Origin: Isoetes taiwanensis
Lineage: Eukaryota; Streptophyta; Lycopodiopsida; Isoetales; Isoetaceae
Length of the DNA: 64,000 bases
Reading direction: 5' to 3'
NCBI GenBank assembly: GCA_021234155.1
Contig: JAJEKV010000035.1
Span: forward strand, 682,001 to 746,000
In this document: positions 2,230 to 42,149 of the stretch, piece after piece
How positions within the stretch are numbered: the stretch's first letter is position 1
Layout: every line of letters begins with the position of its first letter
Made by a program: the position numbers and the translations under genes
Notes under the pieces: generated by a model
The model's input: only the letters and a program-made list of their open reading frames with translations
Told to the model about the DNA's origin: nothing
The model's database searches: none

Positions 2230-2444
2230 AGACTAACCACCAAAATCTGAGGTATTTTGCAAAACAGCCATATTTGAACAATAGGCAAAGAAGATGGATG
2301 CAGCTAAGGGAAGAGTATGATTTTGAAATTGAATATCAACCTGGCAAGGAAAATGTGATTGCTGACGCTTTGTCTAGGAGGTCATTTTTAACCTCTATTA
2401 GTGTTCTTCAAGGACAATGGATGCTGATATTATTAGCAAATTGA
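2010..2444 (+). pseudogene. pol: Ty3/gypsy RNase H domain
   Basis: The start of the domain reads PFHVVTDASGKAIGGVL (about 2032-2083), containing the first catalytic Asp, followed by the SRKLSPAEQNYPLHDLEML block. A frame change occurs near 2195-2210. The domain resumes with LKTNHQNLRYF and ends with the ENVIADALSRR motif (about 2350-2382) that closes RNase H in nearly all Ty3/gypsy pol proteins. It degrades RNA in the RNA-DNA hybrid during replication. Confidence 0.88.
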
Positions 2445-3075
2445 GGAATGATCCGTATTTTGCACCTGTGGTGGAGAACCCTCAAGACTTTTCGAGGTAT
2501 GCATTGTCCAAAGGAGTTTTATATTATAATGGTCGTGTGTGCATTCCTAATGATCAGGAGTTGAAATTGAGATTGTTATATGAAGCACATGATAGTCCTT
2601 TAGTGGGCCACCCAGGGGTACACAAAACTTTGAGGAAAATGCGTCAGAATTTCTTTTGGCCCGGACAGAAGAAGATGGTTAAGGAGTACGTGGCTAGATG
2701 TTTATCTTGTCATAAGGTAAAAGCATCAAGGTTTAGGGAGCCTGGGGAATTGCAACCTATAGTAATTCCATCTTCTAAGTGGGAGAGTATTACCATGGAC
2801 TTCATTGTTGAACTTCCCCGGACACGTTCAGGTTATGATGCAATTTATGTTGTGGTTGATCGGCTAACTAAGCAAGCCCATTTTATGCCTATAAAGACTA
2901 CTGCCACAACGACGAATATTTCTAAGTTATTTGTTAAGGAGATTTTTAGGTTGCATGGAATGCCAGCCACTATTACATCGGATCAGGATACAAAATTTAT
3001 GAGCCAATTTTGGCAAGGGTTGTTCCAAAATATTGGGACTAAGTTATATGCCAGTACATCTTATCGTCGACAGTC
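2417..3075 (+). pseudogene. pol: Ty3/gypsy integrase, N-terminal part, truncated in the catalytic core
   Basis: The HHCC zinc-binding domain is visible (HDSPLVGHPGVHKTL then CLSCHKVKA, about 2590-2730). The core begins with WESITMDFIVELP, first catalytic Asp (about 2785-2815), and has ITSDQDTKFMSQFW with the second Asp (about 2972-3012). The catalytic Glu region is missing: after about 3071 the translation no longer fits. The expected next segment (ADGQVERVNQVLEDML) lies at 21040. The break is therefore best explained by an insertion within the integrase gene. Confidence 0.88.
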
Positions 3076-3125
3076 AGGTCACCTGCTTCGGCAAACAATT
3101 GCTCCTGATGTGTGGTATCTTTGAC

Positions 3126-6580: not shown

Positions 6581-6654
6581 TATACCCACCAAAATTATTG
6601 ATGGTATACCCACCAAAATTATTGATGGTATATACTCACCAAAATTATTGATAG
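6581..6654. repeat. three tandem copies of a 24-26 bp unit
   Basis: TATACCCACCAAAATTATTG plus ATGG is repeated exactly at 6581-6604 and 6605-6628, then once with changes at 6629-6654. A fourth degraded half-copy follows to about 6675. It lies about 90 bp upstream of the first small-ORF promoter. Confidence 0.9.
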
Positions 6655-6714
6655 TATATACATAGAAATTATTGGATCATATACATGTATGGTACTCGTG
6701 ATAAAGGCAATGAA

Positions 6715-7763: not shown

Positions 7764-10318
7764 TTACAAGTACAAGATCTCATGTATTAAGATGAACAAT
7801 GTGCTATGTCTTTCCACATGTCTATAATATATTTCGGAATTTGGATTTGTTTTTGACCTCTTGCCATTGGCATCCCATGCATAATGAATAGCATCTAAAT
7901 TTTCATACCTTGAAGGATCGGAAGGATTAGGCCGCCAACGCTTAGTCAAGCAGTCTTTGTAGTCCCCTCCAGTAGGCTTCCACCACGATACAAAAATATG
8001 GCCAAAATATGTAGATTCTGGATCAAGAACAAAGATTCTCCTCGCATATCCTAACCAAGTGGCGGTGTTATCATCTCCGTGTCTGACTAGAACAAACATA
8101 CCCTTTGTCACATGTATGCGGAGGATCAAACTCTTCAAGAGGCAACACTGGGACGGCCATCCGACGGCCCACAATAAGATGGTAAAGGTCGGTGACCAAG
8201 GCAGATATCGTCGACCTCCTCCGGAACAAATGTTTGTTTGTTCTAGAGGAGCTTGTCTTGTTTGTGGCCAAAATGCATCATTTTGAGGATGTCCCTGAAG
8301 CAACATCCTCCAAAGAGATAAGAAGCGGCTCCAATACTCAACACTTGCCGTGTATTGCCTTGCAAACAAGCTACTTTCTTGATTCTTACATATGTCCTTC
8401 CATAGGGAGATGTATTTGTTGATGCTATCCTTCAACCCTGGAAGATCTTTCAATGTTGGTCTAGGAGGAATATTTTGTGGCACACCACTTGGTATCATTG
8501 GCTGACCATGTTCATCCTCTTTCCACATTCTAACTCCTCGGAGAATCTGGCTGGAAGCCACTCTTTATGTGTAGGGACGCATTTTGTATTGCATAACAGG
8601 CCAATCTCCCGCCATCTTAAATTTGAAGAGCAATGGTTCAAGATGCCCAACCGGTGTTGGCCCTTATCGGGATGAATCCCTTCACAAAATCCTTCCAATT
8701 TGGAACTTCATCAATAAAGTATGGAATTGGGGATTTTGCATTGCATTTGCTAAACAAGTAAAGTAGCTCGTAGTGTCAAAGCATCAAACGAACTCATCAA
8801 GGTTGAAAAATTTCCAAATAAAGCATCAATATCATCATGGGTGTGGCCGACCATCATAAAGCCCACTTGGATCTCATCAAAGACCTTAAGCCAAGTCAAA
8901 TAAGATAAGTATGAAAAGACATACCTATTTTTGTTTTGCCCTGCTGCATTATCAAGTTGCAAATAGAGATTTCGGGGAAGAGGGTTGAACACCTCAGGAT
9001 TCGTTGTAGTTGAAGTATTTGGCAATACTTCTCCCATGGAAGCAAGTTTGTTCTTCAAAGGATTGATGTCCTTGACTGCTTGCATCCATTTGCAATCTGC
9101 AGGCTTACTTCCACATAAGTCACCTATCTTGTCCTCTTGCACCAATTCCAAGTTATGCAATATTCTAGAAAGTGAACCAATGTGGAAGTTTGAATCATCT
9201 TTCCATAAATCAAGTGAAAATGACCATAGCACGACCACCATGCCCATGAGTCAAAGCTCCTGACAAACTGCTCTTCAAGCGATCACCTCTCCATACAGAT
9301 TTTGCTAGATGATGACTTCTAGGCACTAAAGTCTTAACCTGATCCATCTTATCATGTATTATACATAGATGATTTTCAGGAGACCTTTGTGACAATGCTC
9401 TCCAATGCCAATATTGACTTCTGCAAGAGCGTTGCTCTAGCATATGAGACCGACGTTGAATTGCAAGATTTCGTCTCTCTCTCGTATCTTTTGTTTTTCC
9501 GCAGTTTTTGCTTAATTACCACGCAGATGTTGCATTTAGAGAAGGCTGTATTTTTTGCAATGCTAACATCTGGAAATTCCCTTTTCCATATACTATAAAA
9601 AGAGTTCAAGGCTACAGTTGTTCCTGTAAGCTCTTCAACGACTGCTCCAACTTCTTTATGTATAAGCTTCTTATTAAGAATGGAAGGAAGCTTGCGTACA
9701 TTTTCTCTTACATCATCTCTACCTCTTTTGCTCCTATGGGGAATACTTTCAGCATTCTCCTGAATGAATCTGTCTAGCACACATTCGGTGGCCAGTGTAG
9801 TGGATCTGGGCTTCTTAGAGCCAAGATTACCATGTTCAGCTACCTTTGCACTGCTTCAAATCTGTTTCTCCAATTATAAAATGTTGATCGACCGATACCT
9901 AAAGCCATGCGCCACCCAAATGACCAATTCCATCCCCTTGAGCACTATCCTGTCCTCTCCTTCTCCTGTGTAAGTCACACTCAGCACGTCAAAAAAAAAT
10001 ACGTAACCCTTGCATTGTATGGTTGAGATAAAAATTCTTTTCTTAATTCACATACTTGATGCTTGGTAAGTTTCTTGTTGCAAGTATTTTTGCAGCAGCT
10101 TGTCTTCATGAACTTATTGATTGAAGTTGTGGAGCATAGCCTTTCCTCTTTGCTCTTTCCTTGGGTTGTCTTGGAATCCTATGTGTGTAAGTATACTTCC
10201 TTTTTCGTTTGAATTGAGCCTGAATGTTGTCCTCAAAAGATTCTATTTCCATATCCTCATTTTCTTTAGCTTCGATAAGGCTTGCAGATGTTGTGAGGCA
10301 GGTCCTTCCATCCTGCAA
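7764..10318 (-). pseudogene. DUF7869-type gene, copy 1
   Basis: Read from the right, the minus strand gives a basic N-terminus (KRKRKYTYTHR, about 10220), a Cys-rich segment (SCCKNTCNKK, about 10090), a helix-turn-helix-like stretch with GIGRSTFYNWRNRF (about 9890), EHGNLGSKKPR (about 9835), KCNICVVIKQKLRK (about 9530), IIHDKMDQVKTLVPR (about 9335), LYLQLDNAAGQNKNRYVFSY (about 8945) and MMVGHTHDDIDALFGNFS (about 8835). The C-terminal block with WWKPTGGDYKD and a W..D.IHYAWD end reaches 7764. Frameshifts near 10106, 9780, 9376, 9220 and 8750 break it. The LQxDN and GHTHDDID motifs mark the DUF7869 family, common in plant transposon-like genes; an RNase H-like fold is possible but is only inference. 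Confidence 0.75.
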
Positions 10319-17039: not shown

Positions 17040-20000
17040 CTTGAGGAGCATAGTCCTCATTTTGGAAGGTCTTGGTGTATGGAGATCGTTAGAGCCATAC
17101 CCTTGACTGAAGGCGTGACCCAACCAAAGGGAGACAAGAGGCGAGAACTTTGCCTCCTTGTCAAATCGGGTGCAGTGAAGAAGGAGCCTCACCAGGTGGC
17201 CCGGATGGGCATCATTGTCAACATGAGAGAAGTCAAGAAACAAGGAAGACTTGACTTTCTTGGTTGCCGCGATGGAAGATCCGGTCACTGGCAGCATTGA
17301 TCTCTATTGCATGGATTGGCGAGTGCTACGAGCCTGCAATGATGGAGTCCAGCATGAAGGACCAAGCATTGTCGGCCAAGAAAAAAGGTTGGCCGCTGCC
17401 ATCTTATGAGTCCAGAGAGCAAGCAGATATCAAAGGCGGTAGAGATCCTCAAAGGATTGATGATTCTGCGGCGGCCGCCATGGACATGTCAAAAACTCCG
17501 TGTCCTACATTGTAAAAGCGAAGCTCTCGTGCAACATGCCCGATAATGGATAGCGGATGGGCTGCTTTGGGAGAGATCTGAGAAAAGGTGTAAAATTAAA
17601 AATGCCACCAAAGGCGGCAAAGGAACAAAACAGTGGAGGTGGTGATGTACACGGGGATACAAAACAAGAAGAAGGACGAGAAGTTGAGAAAGGGGAGGGG
17701 CATAGGGATGAGAAGAGGGATGAGGCGGAGGCTCACAAACATGATTCTCCGTGAAGTCGAGAACCTGGCGATGAAAAGCCACTGAGCCGATAGTGACCGC
17801 ACTATTAGTGACAATAAGGAGGCTACAAAGCACATAAGAAATGTAGCATCCACGTGAGATAGCACTCCGGCAAAGAAAGAGAAAGAAACCAAAGCCACGG
17901 ATAAGGGCAAGGAAATTACAAAAGATTGCAGATCTTGAAGTGCCAGAGGAACTAAAGATGGGACCGTGGAAGAAGAAGAAGAAATGGCAGAGGAAACACT
18001 AAAGAAAATACAAAACACGGCCACATGTTCCCCTTGGAGTCACATACACGGAAGAATATCTATCCGGGATCTAGAAGAGGCCCCACCTAATATGACCGCC
18101 CGAGGGTTATTAACCCCGAGCATGTTAGGAGGCTACGCAAATCATTTTGAGGATCCACACCGGTATTCACTCCGGCCCGGATGTAGTGCCCTTTGATCCG
18201 GATACAAAGGAGTTCTTGGCTGGTCACGGGAATCGACTTGATCCGGAAAAGATTTTATATTATCAATGGTAATCATTCGATTATTTGCTGCTCGCTTTCA
18301 TTTTATCGGTGCGATAAGTTGGGGACAGAGGATGCTAGAGCTGAGCTCAGCAAGATCTATGTCTATAGAATATGCAGAGTTCTTTCTGGAGAGATCAGTG
18401 ACCTGGACCTTCTTCAGCTCAGTGTGGATGTGAATGATATAGTAGCAAAGACTGTCTTCAAGGAACCATATGTGGATCAGATCCACCATCTTCATAGCGA
18501 TACCGAGAATCGCGGAAGACCAGCCTATTTGGTAAGGGCGATCAAGAAGTGGCGAGTACAAGGTATGTTTCGTCTCCTTACCCATTCATTTATCGAAATG
18601 GCATTGCGCTATTTGAATTCAAATAAGCATTGCGCGCTATTTGAATTGAAATGGCATTACTGCGCGCCATTTGAAATGAAATGGCGCGCGGTGCGCCATT
18701 TCAATTCAAATAGCGCACTGCGCCATTTGAATTCAAATAGCGCAGCTGCGCCATTTCAATTCAAATAGCGCAGCTGCGCCATTTGATGTAAATAGCGCAG
18801 CTGCGCCATTAGATGTAAATAGCAACATTTGAAATTCTAAAATCGCCAGCTCTCTTGCAGCACTACCTTGAAATGGCAGACAAGATTCTGAGGGGCAAAC
18901 ACGCGAAGGATGTCAATCGGTTTGTCTTCATGCGGATGATGTCTATGCACTCTTAGCCGGATGTGGAACAAATGGAGGAAGGAGAACTTAAGGACAGGGG
19001 GGGTCAAGCTATAGTAATCAATTTTGCTAAAGACAAAGATTACTTCAGTGACAACTACCTTAGATGCATGAGGGGCTTGGACTATGATGATTGTAGAAAG
19101 GTCCTCGAAGAAGCTTTAAGCGGGGATATATACGTCAAAGTCACCTCAGTTACAAAGGCGATAATTTCTTCAAGGCGGTATGAGAACTTAAGAGTACTTG
19201 CTTACATGAAGAAGGAGATCGCACTTCATTGCAGATCAAATTGGCACTAAGTACAAGAATTTGAGGACCTAAGGAACCCACGGACCACTTCTCGATAAAG
19301 CACTTACGGTTTGGGGGTATGCCACCATAAGTGGAGATGCGAGGAAGGAATACTCAAAGAGGGAGTTCATGGTAACATGCCATTCTCCTTGGCGGGTCCA
19401 TTGAAAAATCCTTGACTGAAAGCGAGAAAAGGCCACGCCAAGATGGTTTGTGGAGCATGTCTTTGGGGGATTCGAGCGAGCGTGCGGATTCTACACCCGC
19501 CAAACATGATATGTTTAGATGCAAAGGCGACTTACTCCGGCTTGGAAAAGTGAGGGCATGTCGGCGTTCTTCGATAATGTCTCACGGATAATGGACAAAG
19601 AGACATCTTGGATTCTATGTTTCGTCGGGCGGAGCATAACTTACTATTTGCCGGTCGCTTGAAAGACTAGAATCCGGTCTAGAGTGTTTGTAGGAATCTA
19701 TGAAGAAGAGCACGGAGCTCACGGTGGTTCGGGAATCAAAGAGCCACAAGCTCTTCTATTTGCTACGAGGATTTCGACACAGGGCGGGAGAGCGACGAAG
19801 ACACGGACCTTAGGCTATTTGGCGACCATCCTAGAAAGCTCCATAAATTCCTCCTATTCCTAAGGAAGCCATCGGAGTGAGGGCGATGTTATGGCTAAAA
19901 ACTCATGCAAGGCAGGTTTAAGTGGAGTTGGCGGGGGTATGGAGGAGAATATCGGTGCATAAGCAGATTGGTCACCAAGCTGCGTTCTACCTTGTTGATA

Positions 20001-22585: not shown

Positions 22586-24944
22586 GCCCAACCGTAGTCT
22601 ATTGTTTTCAAATGTTGGTAGCATGGCGGGTCATTAGGATTGGGTCTCCAATTCTTGCTCGGCAATCCCTATCTTGCATTGCATATGAGGTTCCCTTTTA
22701 AACAGCGGGCTCAAACCAAGAGACAAACACCTCTTAAGTAATGAGGGAGATTAGGGTCCTCTATTGGGTCCTCTTCGCAAAAAGCCATCCCGTCGGGTAG
22801 TTATCATGTGGCACGATCAGCAAGAGCATTCCTTTCTTGACATCTTGGTAGGGATCGAATATTTCAAGCTGGGTTCTTGGGTCTACCAGAATGGCCCTAC
22901 ATAATGAGATGCTTCAATGTGATGATCCACCAACACGTTTTGGGTTCTTCCAATGCGTCTTGCACAGTCTTTGGGGAGAAATCTTGAATAGCTTGACTCG
23001 GGCTGAGCGTCCCCAAGCACTTTCGCAACAAAGGTGGACCCGGTAGTCAATAACTTCATTCATATATGTGTTGGACCATGAGTTATCGCCCGACTCTAGA
23101 AATAGCTGCCCAGTGCATCATGTACTTGGCAATAGAAGCTCTCAATGCACCTATATCTTTCAAGCTCCCATATGGCTGCACGACCTTAGGTGACCCTCTC
23201 AGAATCATAGGTAAACCTTGGGCATCCTCCTTCCACATTCTGATTCCCTTTTAGGGGAGCCACTCCCTATGTCAGCCTCATCTTGTAGAATATTAGTGGC
23301 CATCCATCCTTCATGAGAACTTGAAGAGTAGAGGTTCCAAATGACCACATAAGCGGTCCTTCTTATCGGGGATAAAACCTTTCGAATTCCTTCCAATTAG
23401 GAACCTCTGACACAAGGTAAGGTGAAGGAGACTTTGAACTACACTGCCTGAAGAGTTGCATAAGCTCTGGAATAGTCAATGCATCTGATCTTCTCATTAG
23501 AGTAGAGTAGTTTCCAAAGAGGGCATCTATGTCATTGGGTGTGTCCAACCATCATGAATCCCAGCTGCACTTGATCGAAGACACCTAACCAAACCAAGTA
23601 TGACAAGTAAGAGAAAAGATACCTGTTCTTCTTTTGACCTGAGCAATTGTCTAGCTGCAAGTATAGCCTCCTAGGCAACTTCTTCGGTACCATAGGGCCC
23701 TTGGGAGGAGGCAGAAAATCATTTCTAGTGCCATTTACCATTTTTGTCCTGAGGGCATCCGTGTTTAAAATTGCTCCACCCCCAGCAGCTTTCAGGATGA
23801 TCTGTATATCTCAAATGTCCCCAATTGTCCTCAGATTGATTCTCCAGTGTTTTTAAGGTATGATTTAAAGATCCCACATGAAAATTCGAATCATCAGGCC
23901 AGAGGTCCAGTGAGAAGTGGCCCAAGGCACCTACACCATGCCCATGCATGAGAGCACCTGTAACACTCACCTTCAATCGTTCGCCCCTCCAAACAGACTT
24001 TGCTAGCTTTTCAAGACAAGGAACCATGGTCTTATTCTGATCCATCTTATCATGTATAATGGTTAAAGCATGTTGAGGAGATCGATGAGACAAAGCTCTC
24101 CATGACCAATAGAGACTCCTGCATGAAAGTTGAGCTGTCATGTGAGATTTCCTTTCTACGGCAAGCTCCCTTCTTTCATTTAGATCTCTAGTCTTGGCAA
24201 GCTTCTCCTTTATCACAATACAGGTATTACACTTAGAAAATGCTATCCTTTTAGCGATTGCTACCTCTGAGTGGTTCTTCTTCCATGCTGACTCGAAGGA
24301 CGAGGGAGAAACATGTTTTCCTGTCATCTCGTGCACTACAGGTAATATCTACCTCTTGATGTATGTCCTTTTTAGTCAAGATGGAAGGTAATCTCTTCAC
24401 GTTCTCTCTAGTGCCTCCACTCGTAACCTTTGAGCGGTGTGGCATAGATCTCAGCATTTTCATCTATATACATAGATAGCACAGCAGTTCCGGCCAGTGT
24501 ATGAGATCTTGTCTTCTTAGATCCGGAGTTTCCATGCTCTGCAATCCTGTGGCCACTCAAAAATAGCTTCCTCCATTTGTGAAATGTAGAAATGGGTATT
24601 ATACCATAAGCCCTATGCCATGCCTTCACGCAGACTTGCTTGTTGTTCAGCATTAGCTTTGTGACAGTTCCATTCTCTGAGCAAAGATCTAGCATATTGA
24701 AAGCAAAAGTTGTGCGTTCTGAGCTTTTCATGTTCCAATAAAAGGTCCTCATGTAGGCTACCTCTTTAAACGTGAAATTAGCACAACATCTCTTCAAGCC
24801 GCAGAGCGAGGACCTGAACTGCAAGATAGCGTCAGTTGTAGTTTTTCTTTCACATTTGTTTAGGGCGGAGCGTGGTCTGGCTCTCCTGTTTACCATGTGG
24901 TATTGTCTTTTTTTTTTGTATTCCAACCTCTGGCATGATAGCAT
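22586..24944 (-). pseudogene. DUF7869-type gene, copy 2
   Basis: From the right, the minus strand gives a basic N-terminus, CGLKRCCANFTFKEVAYMRT (about 24800), an HTH-like ISTFHKWRKLFLSG (about 24590), AEHGNSGSKKTR (about 24545), AFSKCNTCIVIKEKL (about 24230), ALTIIHDKMDQNKTMVP (about 24060), LMHGHGVGALGHFSLD (about 23945), LYLQLDNCSGQKKNRYLFSY (about 23660), MMVGHT with NDIDALFGNYS (about 23550), and a C-terminal WRPNPNDP..Y..L..IDYGW block (about 22600). The order and spacing match copy 1 at 7764-10318 along the whole length. Frame changes near 24400, 23730, 23540 and 23380 break it. An open stretch to 25218 upstream might be a further exon. The same two small ORFs lie beyond its 3' end. 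Confidence 0.78.
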
Positions 24945-25218
24945 AAGGTTCTTTCTCGAGCTCTGTCTCCTTCACGGCCGAAACTAGACTTGAAACTGGA
25001 ATACTGTCTACTAGAACCAATGCTATTGGCCATCTCACCAAATCATGCACCTGCGGCATTTCTGCACAAGCCTGACAGCGCATAGAAACGTTTTCGGGCT
25101 TGGGCAACAAATTCATAATGGAAACCCCTAACCATTCTTCACCCAACTTCATGTCGGACCACGGCATCGTTTTGGATGCGAAGGCGATGATTTTGAAGCA
25201 TAAGGCATATTGCAGCAC

Positions 25219-30732: not shown

Positions 30733-31255
30733 CTACTGATCTCGGATAATAGCTGTGCCTCCCCGGTACACTGCCCACTTTCGCTGTAACCTAGCCTCTC
30801 GCACCTTACACAACTCCTGGCGTCGTCTGGTCAACTGAAGTGGAAAGAGATCCTCCTGAACTGAGAACTGGGTGTCTTTTAGATGACTTCCATGTTGAAG
30901 GACATACAGCCTGTCCTGTAGGCTATTGAACTGCACGACGATATGGCGGGGACGGTCTGGCCTCTGAGTCCCAACCCTGTGCGCTGTAATAATGGCGGGC
31001 CTCTGAATATGCATAACATATGTAAAGAAGTTCTGCCTGTTCTGTATCCAAGGCAGGATTTGCCTCTGGCTCTGGCACACTGACAATGCGCAAATTCAAG
31101 CTTCTGTCCACTGCCGTCTGAGCGAATTTTGCTGCCTGCGCGTTCCCAGGGCTCTTATCCTGCCTGCGACTGTGATCCTGCTCCTGCTCTTGTGTACCAT
31201 CATGGTCTTTTTCTGCCATCTCCACATCGGCAGTCCCATAGGCCTCTGTTTGCAA
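30733..31255 (-). pseudogene. L1-type LINE ORF1 fragment
   Basis: On the minus strand one frame gives an acidic N-terminus and RSLNLRIVSVPE (about 31110-31075). After a -1/+1 change the next frame gives FFTYVMHIQR, ITAHRVGTQRP (about 30980), RHIVVQFNSLQDRLYVLQHG and FSVQEDLFPLQLTRRRQEL, ending near 30733. This order (R.LNLRI.G+PE, AHRVG, RPI+V+F, EDL...R+.L) is that of L1-family ORF1 proteins, an RNA-binding chaperone with RRM-like and C-terminal domains. The frame break and missing ORF2 show a dead, truncated copy. Confidence 0.65.
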
Positions 31256-31691
31256 CAGAGTTTAAAATGAAACGCACTTATTTAAGAAGTGCGTTTGAAA
31301 GATTCCTTTATAAAAATTAAGAATCTGAAAAAAAACACACAAAATAGGGAGCAAAATAGATTGTTGAGCAATTAGCATTCGGGAAACCCCCAAAAAAGCA
31401 ACATTTTTAAAGCCTTTCCATTTTTAAAAGAGGGCAAAAAAAAATGCTTGTTTTTGAGGAGTGAGACATTAATTTTGATAACTCAGTAAATATTTATTGT
31501 TAAAAACAGAGGGAAATATAGTTTGTCTTTTTGCAAGCTTAATATAAGTACTAAGAAAGTCAGACATTGGAAAGATAAAGAGTGTGAAATCATAGAGCAA
31601 GAAAGTGTTATTTCAATCAAGCATTGTTGAAGAGACAAAGCTTTCAGTTTAAAAATCCTCATCAAAATAAATTATAATTATATAGTTTACA
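31256..31691. other. non-coding, with a 10-bp-stem hairpin
   Basis: AAACGCACTT and AAGTGCGTTT (31271-31297) form a perfect stem with a 7-base loop. The remainder is AT-rich and has no recognised gene. Confidence 0.55.
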
Positions 31692-34600
31692 CTAGTAACG
31701 GTGCCCAGCGTTGCTGGGCATTCGTTGGCTGATTATGTGTTAGTAGTATTGTTGCCGACGATGCCGGGCATCTAAGATTGTGTGTCGGGCATGGTGGTAC
31801 AACTCGAACTTTATGCATATGATGGTAAGCAATATGTTAGGGGATTGAGCTACATCGCTTTTCGTATCTACGGGGATATATGTAGTAGATAAGATTTAGA
31901 TCTTAATTTCTTTTCCTTTGATCATTCCATAAGGTCATAAACACAATATAGGCTCTTTTTTGTTCTTTCTTGCTAAAGAAGAATGTTTGCAAAGGCTACC
32001 GTTCTATGAAAGTGCTTCGACATGCATGGGCAAGGCAAATAGCCTTTTTTTTATTAATAAGAAAAATGGCCTCCAGCAAGGCTTGCATCGCAGGGTGAAT
32101 TTTTGTAGTCAAGCATCTAGACACCTACATCTAACACCCCTAAAAGTGAGAGTTATATCTCAGTTTAAGGTGTACACAAAATGTCCCCTAAAAGTGAGTT
32201 ATATCTCAGTTTAAGGTGTACACAAAATGTTTCAGTGGAGGTGACAATAGATGTGACAAAATGGTGGGTCTTTGAACTCAAAATGGTGGCATATTATGGA
32301 TTGTACAATTTGGTGACATACATTGCGGGGAATATAACCAACAATTACTTAGTGCCCTTATTGTTGTTACGTATTGTTTAGAGTATTGTAAAAATCATAT
32401 GCTAACTTGCTTGTTAACTTAAATGCGAGAGATTATATATGCAAGAAAAGACCGATGCCAGAGAATATTGTGGCGGGGAGCTGCAAAGTGCAATATTAGA
32501 AGGAATATTCAAGAGAGAGCCAAACCTTTGATTTGTAGACCATTATAAAATGCTCATTTGCAATTTTACAATGTTGGAAGATATTGCCTTATATCGAAGT
32601 TTGACTTTAAGCAACTTATAGTTGCATGTTCAAATTTAAAACATTAACAACATCACCTTTGCATGCTTCTTTGGAACTTAGAAAGAGATAAAAACAGTTC
32701 CCAAAAATATCTCTTGACCATTGGGGTATTTTGCAAGATCAAGGTGACCAAACAACAAAGATAGATGCTTTTTAATCAATAGCATATTGAACTCGTGCCT
32801 CTCATCAAAAAGCACAATATTTACATAAAATACCATTTCCACAAAGTAGTATAACCGAAACTTCTTTGCAGAGATCAAAAATGTGGAAGGCTAGGATAAT
32901 CATGCAAGGACCTCTGTCATACCATCCGTACTCATCCAAATCTATAAGCCACAATGCATAGAGGTCTTGAAAAAAAGAAATGAAGAACGGGAGAAAAATG
33001 GGCCGATCATTGGGACCCTATCCTCCGCAATAGAAGGGATGGAGATACTCATCGAAATGGGCTCCACCGAATGGCTCTTCACAAATAACTCCTCCCGAAA
33101 TAGAACGCCAGCCTATCCAACCTCAAAAAAGAAGAAGTAAAATGAAATGGGCCCCCCGAATGGCTACTCTATTAATACACGATAGCCTCATGCAAACAGT
33201 ATTAAACATGTACTTTGCCATGCGGAATTTCTCGGCATGCCTAGGAAACGAACGGATGCATACGATCCCAAGCACAACAGGCTCTGAGTCCAACCAGCAA
33301 GGAAATGCCCAAGCCGTAAATTATAAAATGCAAGGCCGGATCCCCCTGCTCGGATTTCGTTGCCATGATTCCAATCTTTGGAGGAGGCCCGAGCACATTG
33401 ACAATTAATGAGCATGAATTAAGACGAACCTCTAAAGGATAGAAATTTGACTCGCACACTCTAGCTTGGCGAAGAGTATTAGATAGATGTTCCTCTTCTC
33501 AGATAAAAACAAGCAAATACAAGAGAAATAAATCTATGAATCGCTTTGAAACATTATAAATTGTACGTATTGTGCCAAGGAACTGGCTATGGTGAAATTT
33601 GGAATCTGCAAACATATAAAAACATTGAGCGTCTGAGAAAAAATGAATAGATGAGAAATAAAAGAAAGCTAAGATCAAAGATGGATGGAAGACTACTAAA
33701 GGAGGTATACATTGAATAATCGAGGCACTGATTTCAAGTATGGACTTCAAAATTGCTTATATGCAAAGGAAAGCTCTAACCACTTGATTCCATTCATATC
33801 ATATTATGAACTTAATTTGCTTATTTTCAAAGGAAAACTCTAACAACGTTATTCATTTTAATTCGGGTCAATTGACATAAGCCCCGCAAAATTAGGTGGG
33901 CAAAAACCCGTGCAAAACCCCCTCGTGCTAACATAAGAAAAACACCGACATGATAAAAATCATTGCGGCTTATAGTTATGACCAAAACTTTGCATAGACG
34001 CACGGACATAGTTGTCTCATCCCCAATTATTCACAATACTATGCATGTTACTCAAATGATCAAGCTAATCACAGGTCAAATGACAAAAGTGAAATAAATC
34101 GTTCTCAGATTCGGACTTGCGATTTAGGGCTAAGGTAAGCATTCGACTCTTCGGGATGAGAGACAACCTAGAAAATGTGAAGTTGAAGTAAGCAACCCAT
34201 AGCCACAACATAAAGTAGTAAATTTTTGCAAGCACGGATGAGAAGTGTTCCACTTACAGGAACTTATAGCTAGATTGATTCATGGCTACCATTTGTGACA
34301 TATGGTGGCGGATATGCTAGGATATGCACTGCTCTTTTATGTTTACAGGGGTGCAAAACATGCATCTAGACGGCATGCGAGAGACAAAGCACCACATCTG
34401 GCCGGAGCTCCATGACTTTGCTTACGTGAGCAAGAATGCCTTTGTTGAAGAGCTCATCTCGCCATGGCTAAGCGAGAAAGTGAAATTCGGCGTGAGGAGC
34501 CGCAAAAAGAAAAACCAAAACATATGCCACGACCTTCCATTCTCTACCGGTTATTAATTTGATTCAATGTCAGTAAAAGCCAACACGCCGTTGAATAGCA

Positions 34601-34733
34601 GCTCCGGAAACAACTCGTTCCCATGAAGGAGAAACCGTAAAGAAAGGTATGTTGGAAAAAAAAGTCCAAAAATCCAAACCGTTCAATTTAGGGGTTTTAA
34701 GACAGACATACATTAAAATTTTATAATATAGGA
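31692..34733 (-). mobile_element. Helitron 2, non-autonomous, 3042 bp
   Basis: Minus-strand 5' end: A|TCCTATATTATAAAATT at 34733, then AATGTATGTCTGTCTTAAAA. Minus-strand 3' end: hairpin TGCCCAGCAACGCTGGGCA (8-bp stem) at 31720-31702, then CCGTTA, then CTAG at 31695-31692 followed by T. All Helitron hallmarks are present: 5' TC, hairpin about 6 bases before 3' CTAG, insertion between A and T. No helicase was found inside. An open stretch at 34324-34557 (plus strand; HLDGMRETKHHIWPELHDF) might be captured host coding sequence. Confidence 0.88.
31702..31720 (-). other. 3' terminal hairpin of Helitron 2
   Basis: TGCCCAGC-AAC-GCTGGGCA forms a perfect 8-bp stem with a 3-base loop, the rolling-circle termination signal of Helitrons. 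Confidence 0.88.
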
Positions 34734-35201
34734 TTGGTAGTAGTTAAGAACTCTGTCTGTATAAATTTATACGGGAGGTGGGAGAGGTGGATCTTCCCGG
34801 TCCACAGACTCTCGTACCCTTTGGGATCCGGCTCTTGCAAGCTTACAACAGCGAGAGACGCCTCCTTCCGATTCCAAACCTATTGGCACAGCGGTTTCTC
34901 CGCGCTCGGGCACCACAGGGCTCAAGTCAACAAACTCCACCTCCTCATCTTTTCTTCCCCGTAAGTGGAGGTCGTATTTACGCATGTAAGTGCCCTTAAC
35001 ATCGCTGGCACCGTTCTTTGCTCCCAGTTCCTCGTTTTCATCGGGAAAGGATTCGCAAGAGCTTATCCCGGTCCCGATGAAACTTACTTTATCCGGGTCT
35101 ATGTCGCGAGATCTACATTGCGCCGCTAAGGAAGAATCGCTGGCGGGTGCCCGATCCAGTAAAAAGGCATCTAGGATCCATCTGGGCGAGAAACCACTAT
35201 A
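34734..35201. other. non-coding or unassigned, one palindrome copy
   Basis: GTATAAATTTATAC at 34759 is the first member of the palindrome family that fills the introns of the neighbouring gene. Open frames on both strands (for example 34990-35340 plus) show no family features; part may belong to the 3' end of the minus-strand ParB-like gene. Confidence 0.4.
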
Positions 35202-35459
35202 TCAAATTATTAATAAGCCGCCGGGTTTCGATAATGGGGACCACCACTTTGTCGTTGTGGGTCTCTCAATTTCCGAAAAACAAATTGAACCGAAATGCAT
35301 TGCGGTGGAGGAGTCTTCATTCTCAAGCGTGTTAAAATGAACCATGGTTTTTGGCATCCGCTTGTAAAACCTATATGAAAATGCTCAAACAACTCACTAA
35401 GCGGACCACCACCATGACCCTTGACGTTTGTTTTAAGCCCGCCAAGCAAAGCAAAGAAT

Positions 35460-35709
35460 TACAAATTAGTAGAAAGAAAACAAGGAAAACAAGTTAGCCC
35501 AAGAGTGTAGCGGTGTAAACTTATATGGGGAGTTGCCTTCTTTGTCAGATAAATTTATACCACGGCGTGAAGCCAGATAAATTTATACGCATTATTGCCT
35601 TGTCAGATAAATTTATACCACCACGGTTGTTCCACCTTTAAGACGGATGTGGTATAAATTTATACCGTGGAGTTACCGTAAAAAAAAAAACGTTAAATAT
35701 AATGCTTAC
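35460..35709 (-). repeat. intron 6 with at least four palindrome-family copies
   Basis: CAGATAAATTTATAC occurs at about 35546, 35575 and 35605, and GGTATAAATTTATACC at 35651. The donor GTAAGC is at 35709. The acceptor near 35420-35460 is not certain. Confidence 0.8.
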
Positions 35710-36658
35710 CAAACGCAGCTGGGCTTCGGCGTTCATGCATCGCCTCCCATAGGTTTAAGCACCGACATCGCCGGGCAGGTCGAATGAAAAATGATGACCC
35801 TCCGCCAGATGTGGTGACTTCTTTGAGGCCATCCAAGAAAGAACGGACTTGCAAGTGAGTAAAAGCCTCCTCGTCAAAAGTGCTATCCTTGATTTTGAAG
35901 TCAGTAAGGAATATCTCGCAATGCATAATGTAAAGTTTTGTTTGTCTAAAAGAATCCCCACCTTGTGCAAATCCACCCCTGAATAACCCCATCTTCGGAC
36001 GCCTTGACCAAATGTAGTAAATTTTTCGTAAGTAGTGTCAAACCGCTAGTGATGACTTCCTTTCCTTGCTCAATTGCTTTTCGATCCCGCGCCTCTCCTC
36101 CTTGGCTCTACTGAACCGGTTTAAAAATCCTCGTTGGTAGGCCTTTCTTCTTATTCTCAGAAGAAAACCGTGAGACAAAGGCACTAAAACAAGTATTTTC
36201 TGCGACAACTTACCCAATAAATCGGTTAATGGGCGTGTTCTCGATAATAGAATCTGTAGTAGAAGTTGGATATAAAGACTTGCACTCCTCCCAGTCCTCC
36301 AGGTTTAGTTGCTTCATTAATTCTGCCTGGCAGGTGACAATGTCTTTCTGACTGCAGAGAGAAAAATGTGGTCAGACAAAGTTAGGAAAAAAAGAACACG
36401 AGATAAGATAATGTGGCTTACGCCTTAACTTCTTTGGCCATTTAAACGAGAGTGAATTCTTTGGCCACAACTTTTTCCGTAAGTCTTACAAAAATTTCTT
36501 TGTTTTTTAAACCCACAGAGTTGCGCCTGTGGTACAATGCTCATGTTTTTTTGTTTTCCCTCACCACCTTTTTTTGGTTTCTTTCCGGCAGAGCTAGATT
36601 GTTCTTTCAGCTCACCATCTTCAAACATACAAAATATTCTTTCTTGAAGATCCCAAAC

Positions 36659-36962
36659 CTGTCAACGATTGAACACAAGTATTTTAGTGTTGAATGGCGA
36701 AAAAGTGTTTATTGTGAAGTCTACTATTTAATTGCACATGAAAGATAGGGGCCACGGTATAAATTTATACGGGTGTACCCGCACTGGTGATAAATTTATA
36801 TCATGGCCACCCTGATTTAAACTTATATCAGTGCACCGGGCACTGATATAAGTTTATATGCGTCCGGGTCACGCGCGTGATAAATTTATACCGTGCCTGG
36901 TCTTCCTTGGTACGCATTTACAAAGTTCATACTGAGAGAACTAAATTAAAGCTTTTACTTAC
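36659..36962 (-). repeat. intron 3 with five palindrome-family copies
   Basis: GGTATAAATTTATAC (36758), GATAAATTTATATC (36788), two degenerate sites (36810 and 36839, TTTAAACTTATATCAG and CTGATATAAGTTTATAT) and GATAAATTTATACC (36879). All lie between the donor at 36962 and the acceptor at 36659. Confidence 0.88.
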
Positions 36963-37915
36963 TTGACCGCCTCGAAAAGCAAGCCGGAAGTAATTGTCGT
37001 CTTCGCTTCACGCCCATTATGGGCTTCTTATCCTCAATCATAGCTAAGGCAAAGACTCGCGTGACACAAGCTTCGAAGTTCTTGGAGCTTGTTCTTTTGT
37101 TTTTGAAGTCCTCTCCGTGCACTTGCTTGAACTCTACGTATTCCGGTGCATGAAGCTTAATCTTGTCTATAAGACTTATTTTTAGTCCAAGTCATTGTCG
37201 AGATTATGACTCCGCGGCAATGACCTTTGCTTCCTCGTCTGCGGACTCCAACGTAGATATGTGCTTCCACACTCTTCCAAACCTCGTTACGGATTCTTCT
37301 TTTGAAAGTTCCTTCCTTGCTTTGTAGCTATGTGTGCCTCCAAGAACAAAGTAGGTGTAATCCTCGAAGTTAGCCTTTTGAAATCTTTCAATTGGTTGCA
37401 CCGACTCTCATCAACCATTACAACTAGTGGCGACACATGGGCATGAGGATTTCTTCTCATTCTTTGCTTCAAGATAGCCACATGTGCCCCGCATGCCTTC
37501 CGGACTGAAGAACTCGACCCCATCTTCATTTTTAGGGCGGCCTCTTAATAGTGCTCAATGTCAAAGAAATTGTTTGTTTGAGCAGTTTAGTTTCATTAAC
37601 CTGCTTAAGAATAGCACTTGACTTATCTGCGGGCTTCACAACGATATCTGCTCCAGGAGCCTTCTGAAGAGCTTCTGCTGACTCCTCTATCGTCAAGGGC
37701 TTTGTGGTTCTAGTTTTTTTCTTAGTAGGAGGCTGTGTATCTACTACCAGTGAATGCTTCCTACCCTTTCCCTTTGGTATTACTATGTCCTCCTCTTCAT
37801 CTTCCTCTTCTTCTTCTTCCACATCTTCCTCTTCGATATTACGGGGGTACCATAGACCCTTGACCAACCCTTTTTCTTCACACAGCACCACTGACATTAA
37901 AATTTCTACTATGTC

Positions 37916-37985
37916 CTGTAATGCAGGGTTAAGTTTAGAGAATGACGGTATAAATTTATACGGAAAGCAACTAAGAGTAACTTAC
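37916..37985 (-). other. intron 2 (70 nt) with a single palindrome
   Basis: GTAAGTTACTC at the donor and CCTGCATTACAG at the acceptor flank GGTATAAATTTATAC at 37947-37961. The exons join in frame across it. Confidence 0.85.
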
Positions 37986-38349
37986 AAAGCCGTTCTTGTA
38001 ATTGTCCGCAATGTAATCATACACGTCTTTGGGCTTGCACATGCTTATTCTAAGCATTCTACTATTCAGAACATAGTAGACCTCCCCCTTGTCATGATTG
38101 CACTTCATCAAAACTTCATCATCGTTCTCTGTAGTAACAAGGCTCATCATTTCGCCAGCAGGGTAATAATCATCAGTCTTGAACTTGCCCTTCCCTGAGT
38201 GGTTGCACAAGTAAAGGTACACCTCAGTGGGTTTGCTCTCTCTTGCACCCCTGTGGACGTACCAAGTCTGTTCCTTTAGTTCATAAGTCTGTGGCTCTGG
38301 TGGTGTAGCCTTTGATGATGAACCTCCGAGTATAAACTTGATCTTTGGG

Positions 38350-38911
38350 CTGAAAAACGCGTAAAAAAAACCACTTTTATACAAGAAACTGAACCTTTTT
38401 CGACTTTTTGAAACACAAAAACAGTAAAAAAAGAGGCTGAAAGGGCATAAAATCCACACTAAATTAACACTTTATTTGTGTCATTTAAGCTTAAAACACA
38501 ACAATATTACCCAAATATTAAGGTTCGGGACCATTCGTTAAGCACTAGACATCAAGACTCCGAAATGGTTCTGAAGCCAGATAAATTTATAACGACTTGT
38601 TAACAGCGGTATAAATTTATATCATAGTACTGATGCAGTATAAATTTATACCGCTTTCGCTCGTTGCTCAGCGGTATAAATTTATACCCCTCGTGCTCGA
38701 GCGGTATAAATTTATACCGCTCCAGAACACTTGCGGTATAAATTTATACCGTTCCAGAACCCAGTCGGTATAAATTTATACCGCTGCGTTCGGCGGTATA
38801 TAAATTTATACCACTCCAGAACCATATCGGTATAAATTTATACCGTGGGCGCTTACACTCTAACAGATTAAAACAAAAGAGAAACTAAAACAGTACGGAT
38901 AGTAGACTTAC
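38350..38911 (-). repeat. intron 1 of the ParB-like gene, with nine palindrome copies
   Basis: The intron runs from GTAAGTC (38911) to TTTTTCAG (38350). Between 38578 and 38850 it holds nine copies of the TATAAATTTATA core: 38579, 38609, 38637, 38673, 38702, 38733, 38767, 38793 and 38829 (approximate starts). At least five are the full 16-bp GGTATAAATTTATACC. Spacing is about 28-36 bp, and spacers such as CGCTCCAGAAC and CGTTCCAGAACC are partly shared. Confidence 0.92.
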
Positions 38912-38959
38912 GTGGCCATGGTCGTATGGATTCGCTTATAGCTGTTCGGAGAAGCAATT

Positions 38960-38985
38960 TGGAGGGGGTATATAAGGCGCAGCTC
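38960..38985. promoter_or_regulatory. TATATA box between divergent genes
   Basis: GGGGGTATATAAGGCGC (38965-38981) reads as a TATA box on the plus strand (TATATAAG). Its complement CTTATATACCCC can serve the minus-strand gene, about 50 bp upstream of the ATG at 38919. It may be shared by the divergent ParB-like and DUF7869-type genes. Confidence 0.45.
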
Positions 38986-39114
38986 GAGCGCCTTGGACTC
39001 CTAGCAGCGTATGTAGAAAATAGGGTGGCCGGCGCCGGGCTTAAGTACCCTCGCTAATGTCGTTTCCAGATAAGCGCTTCTCCATAAAGTTTTCAATACA
39101 ACTCTGTCGTGGAG

Positions 39115-39295
39115 TTTTTCAGATAAATTTATACCGTTTCTTTTCTATGTTGCCCCTCCTAGTACAAATTTGTACCATCTCTCAGATAAATTTATACGGC
39201 CGCTTCAAGTTTGCCTTCTTCAGATAAATTTATACCATCCATGTGTAAACTTTTACCGCTCTTCTCTCGTCAGATAAATTTATACAAGCAGACGC
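39115..39295. repeat. four CAGATAAATTTATAC copies before the DUF7869-type gene copy 3
   Basis: Copies start at about 39119, 39184, 39221 and 39270, each preceded by TCAG and a pyrimidine-rich word. They lie in the 5' region of the gene starting at 39310, showing that the palindrome family flanks both divergent genes. Confidence 0.85.
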
Positions 39296-39309: not shown

Positions 39310-41998
39310 ATGGCTCGAGAAAAAGAACCGCAGAGCCTACAACTCCCCGCTCGCGCAGGCTTCCTCCCCGCAATGACATTCACACCCCTCAATTGACACC
39401 TGGAAGTAGCCTCAAAATTCTGCCTCCGATATTCAAACCCCCAGCCTGTTGAGTTTACTCCAAAGACGACGACCGCCGGCTTCCACCACCAGTTCAATTT
39501 ACTCCACCACACCCCTCGCCCCCGAACGTCGTTTGCCCCACCAATGCGTTTTACCCCACCACTGGGCTAGAGAGGTCGACTACCTCCTCCACTTCATTTT
39601 AGTCGCCACCCATAGTCCAATCAGAGGCTAAATCCCCTGAGGCAAATCACGCCAACTCCATCCATTTCGCTAAATGGTACTACAACAAGTGGGAGCGGTA
39701 CAATGACGCATAACTCTTGTGTTCCCACGACACTTCAGTGGGCTGGTCAACTACGCCACCAACCTCGATTACTTTTTCCCGTAGAGAGGGAAAGCACCTC
39801 CCCCGGGACTTGCCCACACCAAACCTCTCAAAGATCTACAAGTACACCTCAAGTTGATCTCTCGCATCTAAGAAACACCTCATGTTGATCCGTCGGACGA
39901 GGACCTACCAAAGCCACAAGACTCTTTGTTCGAATTCAAAGCCCCTGCAAGTAAGAATCTTAAGCGTAACTTACACAAGAAAGCATGTACAACCGTTAGA
40001 AGAAAGAAACTCATGGACGAGGCTCACTTGAGGGCAACACATACAAAGCACTGTTGTTCTCAACGTTGTTTGCTTAAGATTGGACTAAAGGAATTGAGGT
40101 TGATTCGTGATAGTTACAGTTCAATGACTCTGCTAGACCAAAGGGGCTACTTAGCCTTCAATATTAGGCGGATGATGGTGAGAAGTTTACTTACACAACT
40201 GGTGGCCACACCGCCTCGTCAAACGACCTTCAAATTGATTCATGCTTTAGGCAGTACAGACGACTTGACCGCCAAGAAAAAGGCTTGACAAGAATCCGGG
40301 CATCAATGACTCACCGCCATTGGGAGGCATAACCGAATTCATGCCCTTCAATGTGTTTCCCGGATGGAAGGTTTCTTTAAGGAGTCTTGTGAGAAACTCC
40401 CTAACAGCCCTATGTACCACTTGAGTGACAATTTCACGGTAAAACAAGAAGTCTCGATAATTATAAGATGTGTGTTGAGGCCGGAGAGAACGCTTTGTCT
40501 CAGCTACTCTTACTTTTTGTGCTCTCGAAAAAAGAGTTTTCTCGCGTGTCCATTCCTAGAAAGCATAGGATGTCTGTTTGTGCTACATGCTCAATTAAAA
40601 GCTCGAGAGACAAAATGCAAGGACACTTCACACTAAAAGTAAGCTTCCGGGACGTGTTCTTGCCTAGTTCTACTTAAAAGTAGGTTCTTTCCTAAACATA
40701 TTTTCATTTTCGGATGCATTGAAGGAGAAACCGAAACAAGCACAGAGAACAACAATCTTTGGAAAGGAGAAAATTGACAAAACATAGGAAGAAAGCACCG
40801 AACAACCACTCAACTACATATCGGGTTGTTATTGATGGAATGGACCGTAAGAAGACCACCCTACCACATTTTGTCAATGTGCCTAAGGATGTCTTGAAGA
40901 AGATTTCATACATCCTGCATGTTGTTGGTGCTATGGTATTTAATGGAAAACTATCTTGCAAGGCATTTTTGAATTATCCAAATATTCATGCCGATCCAAA
41001 TCTCACTATCACAATATTGAATAAGCTTCTTTCCAATCTAGAACATATACCAACGGTTCAGATCTTGACTAGACAACACGACAAGGGAAAATAAGAATCA
41101 GCGTTGTTTGCTTACTGTGTTATGCTAGTAGAGAAACAAATCTTCAAGAAGGTGAAGATTGGTTTCGCTTGTTGGTCATACACACGCATCAAATTGATCG
41201 ATGTTCAAGAGAGGTTCTCTAAACGCCTTGCTCGAAAAGCTCTCTCGGCCTACCAAAGAATGATTGAGGTTATCCAAAATTCCTACAATCCTCGCCCGGA
41301 CATCGAAGTTATTGGAAGAAACTTATGATTTCAAAGAATGGATTTTTCTGAGAGATCAACTGGGTCTTTGTGCTATTAAGCCTTTGAGAAACATTACATT
41401 TCAGCATCGGATCAAAATTTCACTTGTAGATGGCAAGGCCATCTTACAAGGAAAGAAATATGCCACATCCTTGCAAGTATGGACCCGGCCAGTTGTGTAT
41501 TCAATTCATTCGCACCATCCCCAATACTAGTTCCATGCTCTTCGCAGAAAGCAAATGCCTCTAAAAGCTTGAAAGAAATCACAAAGAGTAAAAAGGAGGG
41601 GGAAGAGCATTTGACTCAAACAAATCATTGGATTTTATTGAGACAAGTATTCGGGCCGTGTTTCTAACCACTTTGGGGAGGCGATGCTTTATGGTGGCCT
41701 CGCTTTTTTTCAAGAACGTGACATGTTGCAAGCTTCATTACAAGGTCGAAGACCGTTACATTCAATCCGGCCATCTAGGCAAACTCTCCCCGTGCAAGTT
41801 GAGAATCAAGAGGAACATGTAGAGATATTGGCTAGCTCGGATGAAGATGACAGAAGTCATGTACACCGCCCTGTGACGCACAAAGACAACAAGTTGCTCG
41901 AAAGTATCCGTTCGGCCTCGTCGAGATTCGTAAAGGAATGCTCATACCGTCCCCTGTCGGTGATAATGATGAATCTGGGAAGCCGTTCGGCTAGCTAA
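39310..41998 (+). pseudogene. DUF7869-type gene, copy 3
   Basis: A start at 39310 (MAREKEPQSLQL) follows the palindrome group. Plus-strand blocks are a Pro-rich N-terminus, HCCSQRCLLKIGLKELRLIR (about 40049), FSRVSIPRKHRMSVCATCS (about 40540), YRVVIDGMDRKKTTLPHFVN (about 40820), VVGAMVFNGKLSCKAFLNYP (about 40921), LTITILNKLLSNLEHIP (about 41002), CVMLVEKQIFKKVKIGF (about 41116), RFSKRLARKALSAYQRMIEV (about 41212) and KEWIFLRDQLGLC (about 41335). The GHTHDDID motif is degraded to WSYTRIKLID. These blocks match other DUF7869 proteins, of a different subtype from copies 1 and 2. There are several frameshifts. It is divergent from the ParB-like gene at 38919. Confidence 0.65.
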
Positions 41999-41999
41999 A

Positions 42000-42149
42000 G
42001 TACTAGAGGTAACAAAGAGGATGGAATTCCCACTCAATTAAAAAGTGCATCGATGAGAACAAATGCTACCCGGTGCTTTGATGGGAGTTATACTTTGGAG
42101 ATGGTAAAAAAAAGGAGTGGGAAAGAGAGCAAACACAACAAGAGAATGG
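42000..42149. other. short spacer after DUF7869-type copy 3
   Basis: No gene or repeat was recognised. Confidence 0.4.

What the first reader, a model, noticed from the sequence alone, without database searches (positions are those of the whole stretch)
35202..38919. A ParB-like gene whose introns carry arrays of one 16-bp palindrome
GGTATAAATTTATACC or its shorter core (ATAAATTTATA) occurs about 20 times between 34759 and 39285. Wherever exons can be placed, all copies fall in introns (1, 2, 3 and 6) or in 5' and 3' flanks, never in coding sequence. For an 11-base core in 4.5 kb the uniform-composition expectation is about 0.001. The gene codes a ParB/sulfiredoxin-like segment (DYTYFVLGGTHSYKARKEL). 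Bacterial ParB binds 16-bp palindromic parS sites, so the pairing of a ParB-like protein with 16-bp palindromes is suggestive, though this link is speculation. Alternatives are intron-spreading elements, or sites that silence or insulate the gene.
Basis: partly seen in the sequence, partly recalled or inferred. Interest (0 to 1): 0.86.

Follow-up and report, generated by a model that had tools for sequence, protein, structure and literature searches.

The report
Jumping gene studded with palindromic docking-like sites
The palindromes belong to a very numerous plant jumping gene that also carries a bacterial-style DNA-methylating protein; they sit only in its non-coding parts, like docking sites for one of the element's own proteins, a pairing that can now be tested in the laboratory.

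Summary
In detail: all 22 exact ATAAATTTATA positions of the window lie in 34760-39284 (shuffle expectation 0.01). The gene is gene A of an ~8.5-kb DNA transposon with inverted terminal repeats and 4-bp target duplications in 8 of 9 copies. In this 1.66-Gb genome the palindrome occurs 7,218 times; the terminal-repeat core occurs 679 times per strand.
Gene A encodes a ParB-like domain fused to an N6/N4 DNA methyltransferase (PF01555). Divergent gene B encodes a DUF7869 protein, presumed transposase.
In 20 gene-bearing copies, 398 of 398 sites avoid 58 kb of coding matches; they lie in gene-A introns and the shared promoter. All 8 short copies whose two ends I saw keep 9-12 sites.
Best reading: docking sites for an element-encoded protein, most likely the ParB-methyltransferase, which marks or de-silences the element (compare VANC). 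ParB-methyltransferase genes are already reported in algal transposons (PMC12477816); I found no report of the site arrays or of vascular plants in my searches. Binding and methylation are untested, Pfam's ParB model does not match, and the window copy is decayed.

The parts
31254..31691 (+). Left end of the transposon: inverted terminal repeat (AACAGAGTTTAAAATGAAACGCACTTATTT...) and adjoining terminal segment
   Evidence: 89.8% identical to L047 1915-2361; same terminus in L039, L043, L046, L048
31692..34734 (.). Insertion in this copy, absent from the related copy L047 (not part of the element)
   Evidence: L047 is continuous across this point (2361 to 2363)
34758..34773 (.). Single palindromic site near the 3' end of gene A (in the 3' flank, or in a possible intron 7 whose donor-like GTAAGC is at 34846)
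   Evidence: same place in L047, L061, L063, L065; +473 to +510 from the left end in L063, L039, L046, L048, L042
34847..35438 (-). Gene A exon 7 (ends approximate): motif I half of the DNA methyltransferase, decayed here
   Evidence: relatives hit PF01555 N6_N4_Mtase, E 9.1e-13 and 2.4e-13
35514..35666 (.). Intron 6 array (5 sites at up to 2 mismatches)
   Evidence: donor at 35709
35710..36155 (-). Gene A exon 6 (upstream end approximate, read by eye): motif IV half of the methyltransferase (IADIPYGF in relatives)
36214..36351 (-). Gene A exon 5
36422..36658 (-). Gene A exon 4
36756..36892 (.). Intron 3 array (5 sites at up to 2 mismatches; intron 36962-36659)
36963..37915 (-). Gene A exon 3: acidic linker and ParB-like domain, broken by frameshifts in this copy
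37947..37962 (.). Single site in the 70-bp intron 2 (37985-37916)
   Evidence: one site in intron 2 of 18 of 20 copies
37986..38349 (-). Gene A exon 2: N-terminal domain of unknown family
38580..38844 (.). Intron 1 array (9 sites, 29-36 bp apart; intron 38911-38350)
38912..38919 (-). Gene A exon 1 (ATGGCCAC, then donor GTAAGT)
39122..39285 (.). Array in the divergent promoter region between gene A and gene B (5 sites at up to 2 mismatches)
   Evidence: the last site core ends 25 bp before the proposed gene B start codon at 39310
39310..42133 (+). Gene B: DUF7869 protein, presumed transposase (decayed; start codon proposed; similarity to other copies ends at 42133)

Best explanation
SHOWN: the palindromes are part of a high-copy DNA transposon with inverted terminal repeats and 4-bp target duplications. 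It carries two divergent genes: gene A, a ParB-like domain fused to an N6/N4-type DNA methyltransferase, and gene B, a DUF7869 protein. In the copies examined the sites are confined to gene-A introns and the shared promoter region, never overlap coding matches, and arrays persist in short copies too small to hold both genes. INFERRED: the sites are a cis-acting address read by a protein of the element itself, most likely the ParB-methyltransferase. It binds arrays of sites about 28-32 bp apart and modifies or occupies the surrounding DNA. That would mark the element as self, keep it open against host silencing (as VANC proteins do for VANDAL elements), and control the divergent promoter. Short copies keep the address because it lets them be served in trans. 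Which base is methylated, and whether methylation or only binding matters, is unknown.
For: 7,218 exact palindromes in the genome, control pattern 0; 10 of 10 inspected clusters lie in this family (8 with a terminal repeat within the 10 kb fetched, 2 by gene similarity). 398 of 398 sites in 20 copies lie outside coding matches although those make up 58,204 of 97,570 bp. The same introns carry sites from copy to copy, with one site in the 70-bp intron 2 of 18 of 20 copies. No site in 2,365 bp of unmatched sequence inside gene B of 8 copies. Spacers between array units agree at 41%, against 27% when shuffled, while the cores match to within one base, by which they were chosen. Open frames of up to 395 aa without an internal stop among 150 scored matches; ParB exons 84-97% identical to that of L065 in 11 other copies. 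Methyltransferase: PF01555 E 9.1e-13 and 2.4e-13. ParB-like domain: hhalign 82%. A fern protein of the same architecture: P0003, 31.5% over 666 columns, PF01555 E 4.3e-9. All 8 short copies with both ends seen keep 9-12 sites. Precedents: algal Sola1 ParB-methyltransferase (PMC12477816) and VANC arrays in non-coding DNA (PMC5735166), passages read.
Against: No binding, methylation or expression data. Pfam ParB_N does not match, PHROG ParB hits are weak (E 0.08, 0.19), and a smaller row set with one fern sequence lowered the profile match to 59%. The domain that reads the palindrome is not identified. Sites could serve the gene B protein or a host factor. The same palindrome occurs beside an N-terminal domain only about 34% identical (L042), so I found no co-variation of protein and site. 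Motif IV reads IPYG rather than the usual DPPY (recalled), so activity is uncertain. Four related copies showed only 2-5 sites in the stretch held, but their right ends were not in it.
Confidence: 0.58

Rival explanations
1. The palindromes are binding sites of the transposase (gene B product) needed to assemble the transposition complex, like subterminal repeats of other DNA transposons; gene A is a passenger or helper.
For: All 8 short copies with both ends seen keep 9-12 sites together with the terminal repeats; clustered motifs bound by transposases are known from other elements (recalled).
Against: Sites are not concentrated at the ends: in L063 they run from 473 to 4960 of 8529 bp with none in the right 3.5 kb, and in the 20 gene-bearing copies most lie in gene A introns, none in the matched span of gene B.
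Confidence: 0.2
2. The sites bind a host factor: a regulatory or TATA-like array that the element uses for expression, or that the host uses to silence it.
For: A group lies directly upstream of gene B and between the two divergent genes; the core contains TATAAA.
Against: None of the 10 clusters inspected lies outside the family, whereas a host factor's sites should also serve host genes; 10 clusters are a small sample of 7,218 sites. Arrays in introns 3 and 6 are far from the promoter.
Confidence: 0.13
3. The palindromes are selfish or neutral micro-repeats that expand by tandem duplication in introns and avoid exons only because exons are under purifying selection.
For: Array units differ in number between copies and sit in tandem, so expansion and loss clearly occur.
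Against: Spacers diverge more than cores (cores chosen at up to one mismatch); a lone site is kept in the 70-bp intron 2 of 18 of 20 copies and at +473 to +510 from the left end in five copies; none in the unmatched parts of gene B, which are short.
Confidence: 0.06

Closest known systems
Sola1-1_Ec32 and similar algal transposons with a ParB-methyltransferase gene (PMC12477816, passages read; its references 50 and 51 not read)
   Same: DNA transposon; [quoted passage not shown] ParB-like domain plus a methyltransferase predicted to make 4mC or 6mA
   Different: 8.5 kb against 21.5 kb; a plant genome whose protein relatives here are ferns; thousands of palindromic sites in introns and promoter, which the passages I read do not mention; homology of the DUF7869 protein to Sola1 transposase not tested
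VANC / VANDAL21 anti-silencing system of Arabidopsis (PMC5735166 passages, PMC10398659 abstract and outline)
   Same: Element-encoded protein; short motifs repeated in introns, intergenic and terminal non-coding DNA; motif numbers vary between copies
   Different: Different transposon and protein, no methyltransferase in the passages read; there binding and methylation loss were measured, here nothing was
Bacterial ParB / parS partition systems (recalled)
   Same: ParB-like domain; palindromic 16-bp sites
   Different: Pfam ParB_N not met; ParA was not searched for; sites are arrays inside a mobile element; no parS-reading domain identified
Phage ParB-methyltransferase fusion proteins, e.g. 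Gordonia phage Barb gp85
   Same: ParB-like domain first, then DNA methyltransferase with DPPY before the motif I glycine box
   Different: Phage gene annotated as one uninterrupted frame; linked arrays not examined
Adiantum (fern) hypothetical proteins P0001-P0005
   Same: P0003 has the same architecture, 31.5% identity over 666 columns and PF01555; the others match parts
   Different: Their genomic surroundings and any palindromes could not be examined here

Membership tests
Sola superfamily DNA transposon | 4-bp target site duplication | tested here: met
   8 of 9 copies with both ends: L039, L043, L046, L063, L075, L078, L079, L080; not L048. 4-bp duplications of Sola2: PMC3627910 passages
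Sola superfamily DNA transposon | Terminal inverted repeats | tested here: met
Sola superfamily DNA transposon | Transposase homologous to Sola1 transposases | not tested
   No Sola reference sequence was at hand; gene B is DUF7869
Algal ParB-methyltransferase transposon type | ParB-like plus N4/N6 methyltransferase gene opposite in strand to the transposase gene | tested here: met
   assumes that the DUF7869 gene is the transposase
ParB family | Match to Pfam ParB_N PF02195 | tested here: not met
   (0 matches in the genome; control positive in 10 of 14 genomes)
ParB family | Profile similarity to ParB-like proteins | tested here: met
   hhalign 82.4% over 84 columns, reversed control 0.1%; 59.1% with another row set; PHROG best hits ParB-like but E 0.08 and 0.19
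ParB family | Binding to the palindrome through a parS-reading domain | not testable with these tools
N6/N4 DNA methyltransferase | PF01555 above cut-off | tested here: met
   49.1 and 51.0 bits against a cut-off of 26.7
N6/N4 DNA methyltransferase | Intact catalytic motif IV (DPPY-like) | tested here: inconclusive
   IADIPYGF in copies with open exon 6, IADAPYGF or IAEAPYGF in ferns; DPPY as the usual motif is recalled, and is seen in phage Barb gp85
VANC-like anti-silencing system | Motif arrays confined to non-coding parts of the element | tested here: met
VANC-like anti-silencing system | Protein-dependent loss of silencing marks | not testable with these tools
   needs methylome data

The most novel reading that the evidence does not exclude
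A vascular-plant transposon carries its own sequence-addressed DNA-methylation system: a bacterial-type ParB-methyltransferase reads palindrome arrays in the element's introns and promoter and writes N4-methylcytosine or N6-methyladenine along the element, marking self copies, including short copies in trans, against host silencing.
Probability: 0.33. Interest if true: 0.87.

Novelty: new variant of a known kind. Interest (0 to 1): 0.66.

Why it matters
ParB-methyltransferase genes in algal transposons have been proposed to bind and modify their own element, but in the passages I read no target site is named. This family supplies a concrete candidate address, GGTATAAATTTATACC, present thousands of times in one genome, with open protein frames in many copies and short copies that keep the address without room for both genes. 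That makes the proposal directly testable by binding assays and by long-read methylation calls. It would also extend bacterial-type 4mC/6mA writers carried by transposons to vascular plants and parallel the VANC anti-silencing strategy with a different kind of protein.

Tried and rejected
Literature by letters: full-text search for the palindrome and its cores found five papers, none on this subject by title and abstract start. Viral contigs: 34 stretches hold the 16-mer, each listed with a single site; not followed. One window ORF against the protein database: nothing. Helical phasing of the sites: 202 of 309 spacings under 70 bp are 28-32 bp, but the 10.5-bp period is not sharper than other periods (R 0.43; 0.26 at 10.5 and 0.30 at 10 without the main mode), so I do not claim it. 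Conservation of the intron 2 site: in the first 6 introns aligned the site is 100% and the rest 95%, too young to discriminate. ParB by Pfam, NCBIfam and PDB sequence: no match at a usable level. Co-variation of protein and site between subfamilies: the set with a diverged N-terminal frame (150 matches scored of 1,468 candidates, some overlapping) has the same palindrome at the eight loci checked, so no test came out of it. A model of full genomic distribution was not possible: the pattern tool lists only the first places, so only the first 10 clusters were inspected.

Full report
Observation. All 22 distinct positions of exact ATAAATTTATA in the 64-kb window lie between 34760 and 39284; shuffles of the window give 0.01 on average. 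Six 16-mers are exact and 13 match within two mismatches. A second form, TCAGATAAATTTATAC, is mixed in. Over the 20 gene-bearing copies, 202 of 309 spacings under 70 bp are 28-32 bp.

The gene. On the minus strand an ATG at 38919 is followed by six donors that I assign, all GTAAGT or GTAAGC. Introns 1 (38911-38350), 2 (37985-37916), 3 (36962-36659) and 6 (from 35709) contain sites; introns 4 and 5 do not. There is no RNA evidence. The reading frame of this copy is broken by several frameshifts and stops, so this copy is a relic.

It is a transposon. The window lies in a 1.66-Gb genome of 1,110 contigs. The exact 16-mer occurs there 7,218 times, the backwards control 0 times. I fetched 10 kb around the first ten clusters listed. 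All ten belong to one family: eight contain a recognisable terminal repeat within the 10 kb held, and the other two (L040, L045) match gene A or gene B of the family. Ten clusters are a small and not random sample of all sites. The ends are an inverted repeat beginning AACAA[G/A]GTTTAAAATGAAACGCACTTATTT. Eight of nine copies with both ends legible have 4-bp target duplications; L048 has none. L063 is 8,529 bp from end to end. The inner terminal-repeat sequence occurs 679 times on each strand, control 0; among the first places listed, plus/minus pairs are often 8.3-8.8 kb or 2.2 kb apart. In the window the left end is at 31254; a 3-kb insertion (about 31692-34734) separates it from gene A; similarity on the right stops at 42133 and no right terminal repeat is found within 3 mismatches.

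Gene A. A protein search of the genome with the ParB-like segment scored 150 of 2,432 first-look candidates, all 150 significant; rows without an internal stop have open frames of up to 395 aa. Copies with open exons show three parts: an N-terminal domain without Pfam match, a ParB-like exon and a C-terminal DNA methyltransferase. The last matches PF01555 N6_N4_Mtase at 49.1 and 51.0 bits (cut-off 26.7). The motif IV half lies before the motif I half; 53 of 361 phage records with a match align over at least 80% of it, the best at about 24% identity and E 3e-5. Motif IV reads IADIPYGF; that bacterial enzymes usually have DPPY or SPPY here is from memory. The ParB-like part does not reach Pfam ParB_N anywhere in the genome and has only weak PHROG hits, whose two best are ParB-like partition proteins (E 0.08 and 0.19). 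Comparison of profiles with eight rows of phage ParB-like domains gave probability 82.4% over 84 columns, reversed control 0.1%. The phage set was seeded from two of the weak hits (seven proteins in all, five of them found with Laroye gp2), so it is not fully independent. With a smaller set plus one fern sequence the probability was 59.1%. Phage Barb gp85 has the same ParB-then-methyltransferase order.

Relatives. The protein database returned two, then five relatives, all from the fern genus Adiantum (in one search only the 8,000 candidates sharing most words were scored). P0003 (752 aa) aligns at 31.5% over 666 columns and has PF01555.

Gene B. The divergent gene on the plus strand matches DUF7869 (PF25273, E 1.4e-46 in L065) with recurring segments of the type D..MDQ, LDN and GHTHD. 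I take it as the transposase; this is inference. No paper in the library names DUF7869.

Where the sites are. In 20 copies with a ParB exon match, 0 of 398 sites overlap 58,204 bp of coding matches; all lie in the other 39,366 bp of the spans examined (left out: L049, a duplicate of the window, the 3-kb loci L035-L038, and the fetched loci without a ParB match). By place: 123 in intron 1 and 24 in intron 1 or the 5' flank, 110 in intron 3, 65 in intron 6, 36 in the 5' flank, 18 in intron 2, 5 at the 3' end, and 17 of L040 left unassigned by the script. Intron 2 has exactly one site in 18 of 20 copies; L058 and L062 gave none. No site lies in the 2,365 bp of unmatched sequence inside gene B of eight copies, which is little sequence. 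In the window the last promoter site ends 25 bp before the proposed gene B start codon. Between array units the spacers agree at 41% (27% when shuffled) while the cores match to within one base; the cores were chosen by that, so part of this is selection by the search.

Short copies. L039, L046 and L048 (2.2 kb) keep about 75 bp of the left end, the site at +505 to +510, an array like that of intron 1 and about 440 bp of the right end. A related set with a diverged N-terminal reading frame (150 matches scored of 1,468 candidates) was checked at eight loci: all eight have a left terminal repeat and a site near +505. Four of them show both ends, and 10-12 sites; the other four show 2, 2, 4 and 5 sites, but their right ends were not in the stretch held. 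Counting all short copies with both ends seen (L039, L043, L046, L048, L075, L078, L079, L080), 8 of 8 hold 9-12 sites in 2.2-3.4 kb.

Mechanism. Shown: a transposon, its two genes, and site placement that is confined to non-coding DNA of gene A and the promoter region and kept in short copies. Inferred: an element protein reads the sites. The ParB-methyltransferase is the best candidate because the arrays sit in its own gene and promoter, because ParB-like and methyltransferase proteins act on specific DNA sites (general knowledge), and because two published systems point that way. In Ectocarpus a Sola1 transposon carries a ParB-methyltransferase gene opposite to the transposase, and its authors suggest that such proteins bind and modify their own transposon (PMC12477816, passages read). 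In Arabidopsis, VANC proteins bind short motifs that accumulate as tandem repeats in introns and other non-coding parts of VANDAL elements and cause methylation loss (PMC5735166, passages read; PMC10398659, abstract and outline). The main rival is that the transposase reads the sites.

Novelty. ParB-methyltransferase transposons are published for algae, so the kind is known. My full-text searches brought up no report of the palindrome or, in their listings, of such a gene in vascular plants; the library lacks most subscription journals, and the two references cited for green and red algae were not read. I rate it a new variant of a known kind.

Noticed in passing
window 7767-9855 (-) and 23535-24971 (-): Two further decayed DUF7869 genes, about 41-45% identical to gene B over short stretches; no palindrome of this type near them and no methyltransferase exon matched there.
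   Followed up: partly
window 43000-64000: Large tandem duplication: the same short repeats recur at 43867, 46590 and 49327, about 2.7 kb apart; similar reading frames seem to repeat to the window end (by eye).
   Followed up: no
window 6581-6674: Tandem array of about 24-26-bp units (TATACCCACCAAAATTATTGATGGTA) resembling another spaced-palindrome array, downstream of the DUF7869 relic at 7767-9855.
   Followed up: no
window 18601-18823: Tandem repeat with units containing ATTTGAATTCAAAT, itself palindromic, about 27-28-bp period.
   Followed up: no
window 239-3124 (+): Remains of a retrotransposon with aspartyl protease and integrase domains by Pfam; Gypsy type by my reading.
   Followed up: partly
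window 31692-34734: Insertion that splits this copy from its left end; contains a plus-strand exon-like frame at 34321-34554 of unknown origin.
   Followed up: partly
L074-L081 and L042 4224-4679 (-): Elements, several of them about 2.2 kb, with a diverged N-terminal-domain reading frame; 150 matches scored in the genome, some overlapping. They may make a small protein of their own.
   Followed up: partly
L061 4797-8259: A nested insertion in the 5' flank with long minus-strand frames that look like a CACTA transposase gene (recognised from memory, not run against Pfam).
   Followed up: no
L069 1486-2700 (Gordonia phage Barb gp85): Phage protein annotated only as DNA methylase is a ParB-like plus methyltransferase fusion.
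   Followed up: partly
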